This document shows positions 57,254 to 58,158 of a stretch of 64,000 bases of DNA, in pieces; the stretch's first letter is position 1; the number at the start of each line of letters is the position of its first letter. The position numbers and the translations under genes are program-made. This DNA comes from Baekduia soli (lineage in GTDB: Bacteria; Actinomycetota; Thermoleophilia; Solirubrobacterales; Solirubrobacteraceae). The notes beneath the pieces are model-generated. The model was given only the letters and a program-made list of their open reading frames with translations. It was not told where the DNA came from and did not search any database. The DNA lies in assembly GCF_007970665.1 (NCBI RefSeq), contig NZ_CP042430.1, positions 558,001 to 622,000 of the forward strand, read 5' to 3'.

Positions 57254-57838
57254 CTAGACGACGGAGGCGATGCGCTCCTGGACCGTCGTGGCGGCCTTCT
57301 GGCCCGCCGTGCGGCCCGTCTGGACGAGGTTCTCGACGCGCGAGGTGACGAAGTCGGCCTGGGCGGTGACGTCCTTGCCCGTCGTCGAGACCTGCTTGCC
57401 GAGCGACTTGGCGTCGCGCTGCAGGCGCGTGCGGCGCTGCTTGAGGTCGCGCTCGAAGCGGGTGCGGGCGGTGCTGCCACGGCGCTCGAAGCGCTTGAGC
57501 TCGGCCTCGAGGCGGCGGCGGCGGACCTGCAGCTCCTTCTCGGCCGCGGCGCGCGAGCCCAGCGAGGTGCGGAGGCCGTCGACGGCGCCGACGACGGCGT
57601 CCCGGGCGACGAGGGTGGCGCCCAGCGGCACGAGCACAGCGCGCTCTGCGTACTCCTGCACGCGGTCGACCGGGGTCTTGGCGAGCTCACGACGGGTCTC
57701 GGCGGCCATCTTGGCGGCCGTGGTGCGCTTGCGGGCCTCGGCGGCCTGGTTGGCAGAACGCGTGGCCGCGGCCTTCTTGGCGGCGGTCGAGCGCTTCGTC
57801 GCGGCGGTCTTGCGCTGCGTGGTGGCGGTGGTGGCCAT
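57254..57838 (-). CDS. Basic coiled-coil (phasin/histone H1-like) protein behind SOS boxes
   Basis: A 194-residue protein. Residues 1-50 are Ala/Lys/Arg/Thr-rich (TTQRKTAATKRSTAAKKAAA), like histone H1 or HupB tails. A helical region follows (VDRVQEYAERAVLVPLGATL near 57-76), then a long charged coiled coil (ELQVRRRRLEAELKRFERRG through TRLQRDAKSLGKQVS), and a C-terminal amphipathic helix TSRVENLVQTGRTAGQKAAT. It may bind DNA or polymers; the phasin resemblance is by layout only. AGGAG lies before the ATG. On the minus strand, TACAGT (57889-57894) is a likely -10, and two LexA-type boxes lie upstream, suggesting induction by DNA damage. Confidence 0.75.
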   Translation of the reverse strand: MATTATTQRKTAATKRSTAAKKAAATRSANQAAEARKRTTAAKMAAETRRELAKTPVDRVQEYAERAVLVPLGATLVARDAVVGAVDGLRTSLGSRAAAEKELQVRRRRLEAELKRFERRGSTARTRFERDLKQRRTRLQRDAKSLGKQVSTTGKDVTAQADFVTSRVENLVQTGRTAGQKAATTVQERIASVV

Positions 57839-57888
57839 GGTGTGCTCCTGGGGCTAAGGAAGTTAGAACTAAGTGCCGTTCGCCTGAG

Positions 57889-57894
57889 ACTGTA
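57889..57894 (-). promoter_or_regulatory. Probable -10 box of the coiled-coil protein gene
   Basis: Read on the minus strand this is TACAGT, about 51 bases before the ATG. The imperfect SOS box (57899-57912) lies immediately upstream in the spacer region, where LexA would block RNA polymerase. Confidence 0.55.
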
Positions 57895-57898
57895 GCAG

Positions 57899-57912
57899 CG
57901 AACACCTGTTTG
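57899..57912. promoter_or_regulatory. Imperfect SOS box (LexA site)
   Basis: CGAACACCTGTTTG matches the actinobacterial LexA consensus CGAAC-N4-GTTCG at nine of ten fixed positions (GTTTG instead of GTTCG) and adjoins the predicted -10 of the downstream gene. Confidence 0.65.
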
Positions 57913-57940
57913 TACGCATGGCGGTCGTGAAGGTTACGGG

Positions 57941-57956
57941 CCGAACCGATGTTCGG
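57941..57956. promoter_or_regulatory. Perfect SOS box (LexA site)
   Basis: CCGAACCGATGTTCGG is a perfect CGAAC-N4-GTTCG with an extra matching pair on each side. It is centred 42-43 bases from the imperfect box, about four helical turns. A reversed arrangement GTTCG-N4-CGAAC lies at 57962-57975. Confidence 0.75.
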
Positions 57957-58158
57957 GTGGAGTTCGGGGGCGAACGGGCGTTTCTCGGTGCGGCGCGCGG
58001 GGGCCCAACCACTCTGGGTCGAACCGAGCGTGCATATGACACCCCACGCGACCCACGGAGTCGACGCAGGGCGCCTGGTCCGCCACCGAGTCGGATGAGA
58101 CGACCCACGTCACCCGCCGACGACCATTCCTGCCCGCCCCGCCGCCGACGCCCCCGGC
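57957..58158. other. Remaining intergenic sequence upstream of the SOS boxes
   Basis: Together with 57839-57956 this forms a 320-base gap. Apart from the GTTCG-GGGG-CGAAC inverted pair at 57962-57975 I see no gene, RNA structure or repeat; the stretch up to 58158 is less GC-biased than its flanks. Confidence 0.4.

What the first reader, a model, noticed from the sequence alone, without database searches (positions are those of the whole stretch)
57254..57975. Basic coiled-coil protein apparently under SOS control
Seen: a perfect LexA-type box (57941-57956), a near-perfect box (57899-57912) adjoining a TACAGT -10, and a reversed CGAAC pair (57962-57975) upstream of a 194-residue protein with a histone-like Lys/Ala tail and coiled coil. 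Known: LexA in actinobacteria binds CGAAC-N4-GTTCG. Inference: a damage-induced nucleoid-binding or phasin-like protein, not a known member of the SOS regulon.
Basis: partly seen in the sequence, partly recalled or inferred. Interest (0 to 1): 0.6.

Follow-up and report, generated by a model that had tools for sequence, protein, structure and literature searches.

The report
SOS-controlled basic coiled-coil protein gene
A small, very basic, uncharacterised protein found throughout one order of soil actinobacteria (Solirubrobacterales) sits behind a promoter whose LexA-type DNA-damage switch has been conserved across dozens of genera, so it is very probably made when DNA is damaged and may coat or tether DNA.

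Summary
Both LexA-type boxes exist (57942-57955 perfect; 57899-57912 one mismatch); they are the only two window sites scoring >=12 bits with a matrix built solely from lexA promoters of relatives. The "near-perfect" box matters most: it fills the -35/-10 spacer, and 72% of 83 orthologue upstream regions carry a >=14-bit box against 0.3% of shuffles. Of 34 exact matches to GGTTTACAAACNNNTGTTCG in the order, 33 lie in front of this gene and one is cut by a contig end. The perfect box lies exactly 43 bp upstream, a spacing kept in several genera. The same boxes in this genome precede lexA, dinB, dnaE2, uvrA and a UvrD/PcrA helicase. LexA repression is very likely, though unproven. The protein (pI 11.5, long helices, N-terminal Lys/Ala/Thr tail) matches no curated family; it resembles HBHA/MLDS in its modules but with the tail at the other end. 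A nucleoid or DNA-tethering function is inference. The "reversed pair" at 57962-57975 has no support. A 5'UTR palindrome, unique in the genome, is unexplained.

The parts
57254..57838 (-). Gene for a 194-aa basic coiled-coil protein: N-terminal Lys/Ala/Thr tail (about 1-55), conserved AERAVLVPLGATLVARDAV helix (about 64-82), basic coiled coil (about 91-194)
   Evidence: orthologues in 85 of 101 relatives
57845..57849 (-). Ribosome-binding site AGGAG
   Evidence: shortly before the ATG at 57838
57854..57872 (-). 5'UTR element TTAG-TT-CTAA (57863-57872) followed by CCTTAG (57854-57859); function unknown
   Evidence: only TTAGNNCTAA in the 5.2 Mb genome; a form of it upstream of 53 of 83 orthologues against 1% of shuffles
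57889..57894 (-). -10 element TACAGT
   Evidence: TAnnnT at the same place in most orthologues
57899..57912 (-). Promoter-embedded LexA-type operator CAAACAGGTGTTCG, in the -35/-10 spacer
   Evidence: 17.6 bits; conserved in orthologues
57911..57916 (-). -35 position: CGTACA here (weak), TTTACA in most orthologues; overlaps the first two bases of the operator
57933..57937 (-). Conserved GTAAC element (TGTAAC in most orthologues), about 22 bp upstream of the -35; unknown regulator
   Evidence: upstream of 58 of 83 orthologues
57942..57955 (-). Upstream perfect LexA-type operator CGAACATCGGTTCG, 43 bp from the spacer operator
   Evidence: box at 42-44 bp in 12 of 66 orthologue promoters against a mean of 0.36 per offset
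57971..57984 (-). Possible third, degenerate box GAAACGCCCGTTCG (2 mismatches)
   Evidence: a 1-mismatch box at the corresponding place in one close relative (L020) only

Best explanation
The gene is a LexA-repressed member of the SOS regulon of the Solirubrobacterales. A LexA dimer sits on CAAACAGGTGTTCG between the -35 and -10 and blocks RNA polymerase; in this genus and some others a second dimer binds a box 43 bp upstream, about four helical turns, on the same face of the helix. When RecA filaments form on damaged DNA, LexA cleaves itself and the protein is made. Shown here: operators, their place, their conservation, a LexA gene, and the same box at known SOS genes. Inferred: LexA binding and induction. 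The product is an all-helical protein of pI about 11.5 that most likely binds DNA without sequence preference through its Lys/Arg-rich tail and arms, and compacts, bridges or tethers damaged DNA, perhaps to a membrane or inclusion through the conserved hydrophobic helix. This functional step is inference.
For: A matrix made only from lexA promoters scores >=14 bits in 72% of 83 orthologue upstream regions against 0.3% of dinucleotide shuffles, and gives 30 sites in 3,973 promoter positions against 5 in 93,451 positions elsewhere in the same loci. In the order the combined promoter/operator string is found only at this gene: 33 of 34 confirmed, 1 truncated. Where the TTTACA -35 is lost (genus g13: L058, L084, L103) the left half-site becomes perfect CGAAC; genus g45 has two tandem boxes, as expected if the palindrome itself is selected. 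43-bp tandem spacing. Boxes in this genome precede lexA, dinB, dnaE2, uvrA, a UvrD/PcrA helicase, a DinB-like polymerase and an Rv2578c-type gene; recA has a 1-mismatch box. LexA in 94 of 101 relatives, with the same box in 28 of 30 lexA promoters read. Independent parallel: four clostridial ruvC promoters carry the identical arrangement. S. venezuelae LexA binds tCGAAC-N4-GNNCGa, including sites with one degenerate half (PMC9380542). Protein: pI 11.5 here, median 11.6 in the family; long helices. HBHA and MLDS, with similar modules, bind DNA non-specifically, and MLDS protects against UV (PMC10665949; PMC5504291).
Against: No binding or expression data. Some genera keep the gene but have lost the box (f4 g28: L080, L082, L091-L093; g26: L073, L086; also L036), so SOS control is not essential to it. 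Three relatives at least 90% complete lack a detected LexA; two of them (G012, G036) have the box, but these are incomplete draft assemblies. The promoter has two further conserved elements (GTAAC, TTAGNNCTAA), so LexA may be only one input. Orthologues are related, so the percentages are not independent counts. DNA binding by the protein is untested and the structure model has pTM 0.38.
Confidence: 0.68

Rival explanations
1. The conserved palindrome is the operator of another repressor with a LexA-like recognition sequence dedicated to this gene, not of LexA.
For: The promoter holds another single-gene element, and the exact combined string is confined to this gene in the order. Two genomes without detected LexA keep the box.
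Against: The half-sites and preferred central bases match those of the lexA promoters of the same genomes; perfect forms occur upstream of dinB, dnaE2 and uvrA in the same genome; clostridial ruvC promoters have the same arrangement; the confinement of the string is explained by the -35 being fused to the box.
Confidence: 0.1
2. LexA does control the gene, but the product is a phasin-like or lipid-body/membrane scaffold whose task under damage is not DNA binding; its basic arms serve the cell envelope or storage granules.
For: Conserved hydrophobic AERAVLIPVGAAL helix; weak apolipoprotein-type profile matches in 14 of 53 members; HBHA takes part in lipid inclusion formation (PMC6176652, title).
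Against: High net positive charge in all members measured (+14 to +53) with Lys/Ala repeats like those that bind DNA in HBHA and MLDS; weak coiled-coil profile matches are not specific.
Confidence: 0.25
3. The boxes are vestigial or neutral matches in a GC-rich genome.
For: CGAAC and GTTCG are common words at this GC content; 63 sites with up to 2 mismatches against 45 expected.
Against: Enrichment in orthologue promoters over shuffles and over the rest of the same loci, conserved spacing, conserved place in the spacer.
Confidence: 0.03

Closest known systems
LexA/SOS regulon of actinobacteria (e.g. Streptomyces venezuelae, PMC9380542)
   Same: Box sequence, operator in the promoter, LexA and RecA in the genome, same core SOS genes with boxes
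   Different: The gene is not among the S. venezuelae targets listed in the table read and belongs to a family found here only in Solirubrobacterales; operator fused with the -35 and in several genera doubled at 43 bp
HBHA of mycobacteria and MLDS of Rhodococcus (PMC10665949, PMC5504291)
   Same: Module set: short hydrophobic helix, coiled coil, Lys/Ala-rich tail with AKKA; small basic protein
   Different: Tail at the N-terminus instead of the C-terminus; coiled coil itself strongly basic; no matching family model; MLDS is controlled by MLDSR, not LexA
PhaF-type phasins with histone-like tails (from memory)
   Same: Basic Lys/Ala-rich tail plus long helix
   Different: No phasin profile match; no PHA link tested; tail at the other end
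Clostridial ruvC promoters
   Same: Identical TTTACAAACNNNTGTTCG -35/LexA box fusion in front of a DNA-repair gene
   Different: Unrelated gene and phylum; apparently convergent arrangement

Membership tests
SOS (LexA) regulon | LexA-type box overlapping the promoter | tested here: met
   57899-57912 in the -35/-10 spacer
SOS (LexA) regulon | Box conserved upstream of orthologues beyond chance | tested here: met
SOS (LexA) regulon | LexA in the genome with the same box on its own promoter | tested here: met
SOS (LexA) regulon | LexA binds the operator; RecA-dependent induction by DNA damage | not testable with these tools
   needs ChIP, SPR or RNA-seq
HBHA/MLDS | Hydrophobic helix, coiled coil, then C-terminal Lys/Ala/Pro tail | tested here: not met
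   modules present but the tail is N-terminal
HBHA/MLDS | Sequence homology to the family | tested here: inconclusive
   no Pfam or NCBIfam match naming it; no direct profile-profile comparison made
Phasin | Match to a phasin profile | tested here: not met
   none in Pfam or NCBIfam
Histone-like / nucleoid-associated protein | Small, basic, abundant DNA-binding protein | tested here: inconclusive
   small and basic; one member matches HC2 weakly; DNA binding and abundance not testable

The most novel reading that the evidence does not exclude
A whole order of actinobacteria has a dedicated, SOS-induced nucleoid protein of a new family that packs or tethers damaged chromosomes, under a promoter in which the -35 and the LexA operator are fused and, in some genera, backed by a second operator four turns away, with a further single-copy 5'UTR element acting as an independent control.
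Probability: 0.35. Interest if true: 0.7.

Novelty: new member of a known kind. Interest (0 to 1): 0.52.

Why it matters
SOS regulons mostly hold repair and mutagenesis genes; a deeply conserved SOS gene for a histone-like coiled-coil protein would link DNA damage to chromosome packing or tethering in a large, little-studied soil lineage. It gives an uncharacterised protein family a testable role, and it offers a compact case of a promoter fused with a LexA operator that seems to have arisen separately in clostridial ruvC.

Tried and rejected
Family scans with Pfam and NCBIfam: no curated match for the window protein; weak coiled-coil matches among members only. PDB sequence search: nothing convincing, best a designed helical bundle at E 0.01. 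Foldseek against PDB: no match, which says little for long helices. Named-genome protein search with the alignment: no stretch conserved enough; replaced by a DNA pattern scan. The reversed CGAAC pair at 57962-57975 was considered and set aside: its half-sites face the wrong way and it was not seen as a conserved element in the aligned promoters. The anchored column statistics were not used as evidence for the invariant half-site letters, because the anchor pattern selects them. Genomes without a LexA hit were not used as a covariation test, because most are incomplete.

Full report
What is there. The window lies in a 5.2 Mb genome (G000:C1:558001-622000). The gene at 57254-57838 on the minus strand encodes 194 residues with an AGGAG site. 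Upstream on the same strand is a Zincin_2 metallopeptidase gene, whose stop is at about 58159, leaving some 320 bases between. CGAACCGATGTTCG lies at 57942-57955 and CGAACACCTGTTTG at 57899-57912. The genome has 20 CGAACN4GTTCG sites against 2 for the reversed-pattern control.

The regulon in this genome. Genes behind the perfect boxes include lexA, DNA polymerase IV (dinB), an error-prone DnaE2-type polymerase, UvrA, a UvrD/PcrA-type helicase, a protein with weak DinB similarity, and an intein-bearing Rv2578c-type radical SAM protein. recA has a one-mismatch box. This is a recognisable SOS set, so the motif in this genome is most simply read as LexA's. Not every box needs to be functional: one precedes a threonyl-tRNA synthetase gene.

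The promoter. Orthologues were found in 85 of 101 relatives and 83 loci were read. The common plan, 5' to 3', is TGTAAC, about 16 bases, GTTTACAAACNNNTGTTCG, a few bases, TAnnnT, then CTTAGAACTAA-N4-CTTAG. The TTTACA -35 shares its last two bases with the left half of the box, and the right half lies in the spacer, where promoters usually have no sequence demand. That explains why the box has CAAAC where LexA prefers CGAAC. In genus g13, which has lost TTTACA, the box is perfect CGAACN4GTTCG; in family f3 the left half is often AGAAC, and genus g45 has two boxes in tandem. These changes keep the palindrome and shift with the -35, which is the pattern expected under selection for a palindromic operator.

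Numbers. A weight matrix was built only from lexA-promoter sites of relatives. Of 83 upstream regions, 72% reach 14 bits against 0.3% of 1,660 dinucleotide shuffles. Within the first set of orthologue loci, 30 sites lie in 3,973 positions upstream of the gene and 5 in 93,451 positions elsewhere. In the window the only sites of 12 bits or more are the two boxes. Orthologues share ancestry, so these are enrichments, not independent trials. In one search the anchor pattern fixes the half-site letters, so their 100% figures there carry no weight.

Two operators. A second box lies 42-44 bp upstream of the spacer box in 12 of 66 promoters, 10 of them at exactly 43, against a mean of 0.36 per offset, in this genus and several others. 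In the named-genome set 7 of 34 have it (some species overlap with the first set). The window has it: 57942 and 57899.

Specificity. Of 62 exact matches to GGTTTACAAACNNNTGTTCG in 84,980 species genomes, 34 lie in Solirubrobacterales or loosely named records that carry the same gene; 33 have this gene directly downstream, and the last is cut by a contig end 79 bases on. The other 28 are scattered, close to the rough number chance would give (my estimate for 17 fixed bases in 257 billion), but four are promoters of clostridial ruvC with the same arrangement (RuvC domain confirmed for two by Pfam). ruvC is a LexA target in S. venezuelae (PMC9380542). That is an independent sign that the fused string can serve as a LexA operator.

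Loss. Genus g28 of family f4, genus g26 and L036 keep the gene and a form of the TTAG element, and most keep TGTAAC, but lack the box. SOS control is therefore an old but dispensable input.

The protein. No Pfam or NCBIfam family fits. The family is order-specific in a sample of 396 genomes of the phylum, with only weak partial matches elsewhere. All members measured are basic, median pI 11.6, net charge +14 to +53. AlphaFold2 gives helices 4-52, 56-93 and 96-193, mean pLDDT 81, pTM 0.38: helices are credible, their packing is not. The sequence has a Lys/Ala/Thr tail with an AKKA motif, a conserved hydrophobic helix with an invariant glycine (G73), and a basic coiled coil with a conserved FERRG (E118, R120, G121 invariant). 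HBHA has a hydrophobic helix, a coiled coil and an AKKA tail that binds DNA (PMC10665949); MLDS binds DNA through its Lys-rich tail, and cells lacking it suffer more breaks under UV (PMC5504291). Ours has the same parts with the tail moved to the N-terminus. So it may work like them; it is not shown to be one of them.

Verdict. Observation confirmed. SOS control very likely (about 0.85 by my estimate), DNA binding plausible (about 0.55). Ordinary in kind, since it is one more LexA target, but the depth of conservation, the fused and doubled operator and the histone-like product make it worth a bench test.

Noticed in passing
window 57854-57872 (-): Palindromic 5'UTR element TTAGNNCTAA plus CCTTAG just downstream of the -10; the only TTAGNNCTAA in the 5.2 Mb genome, conserved across the order and kept where the LexA box is lost. 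Function unknown: operator of a dedicated regulator, or an RNA element.
   Followed up: partly
window 57933-57937 (-) and orthologues: GTAAC/TGTAAC element at fixed distance upstream of the -35, roughly an inverted repeat with GTTTACA; regulator unknown.
   Followed up: partly
L055, L062, L069, L081, L102, L106: CRP-like TGTGA-N6-TCACA sites in the same promoter region of some orthologues.
   Followed up: no
L176, L186, L226, L229: Clostridial ruvC promoters with the same fused -35/LexA box string, apparently convergent.
   Followed up: partly
L016:1508-3013 (+): Rv2578c-type radical SAM protein with an intein, behind a perfect LexA box overlapping its start.
   Followed up: no
L014: Perfect CGAACGGGCGTTCG upstream of a threonyl-tRNA synthetase gene; chance or real target unclear.
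   Followed up: no
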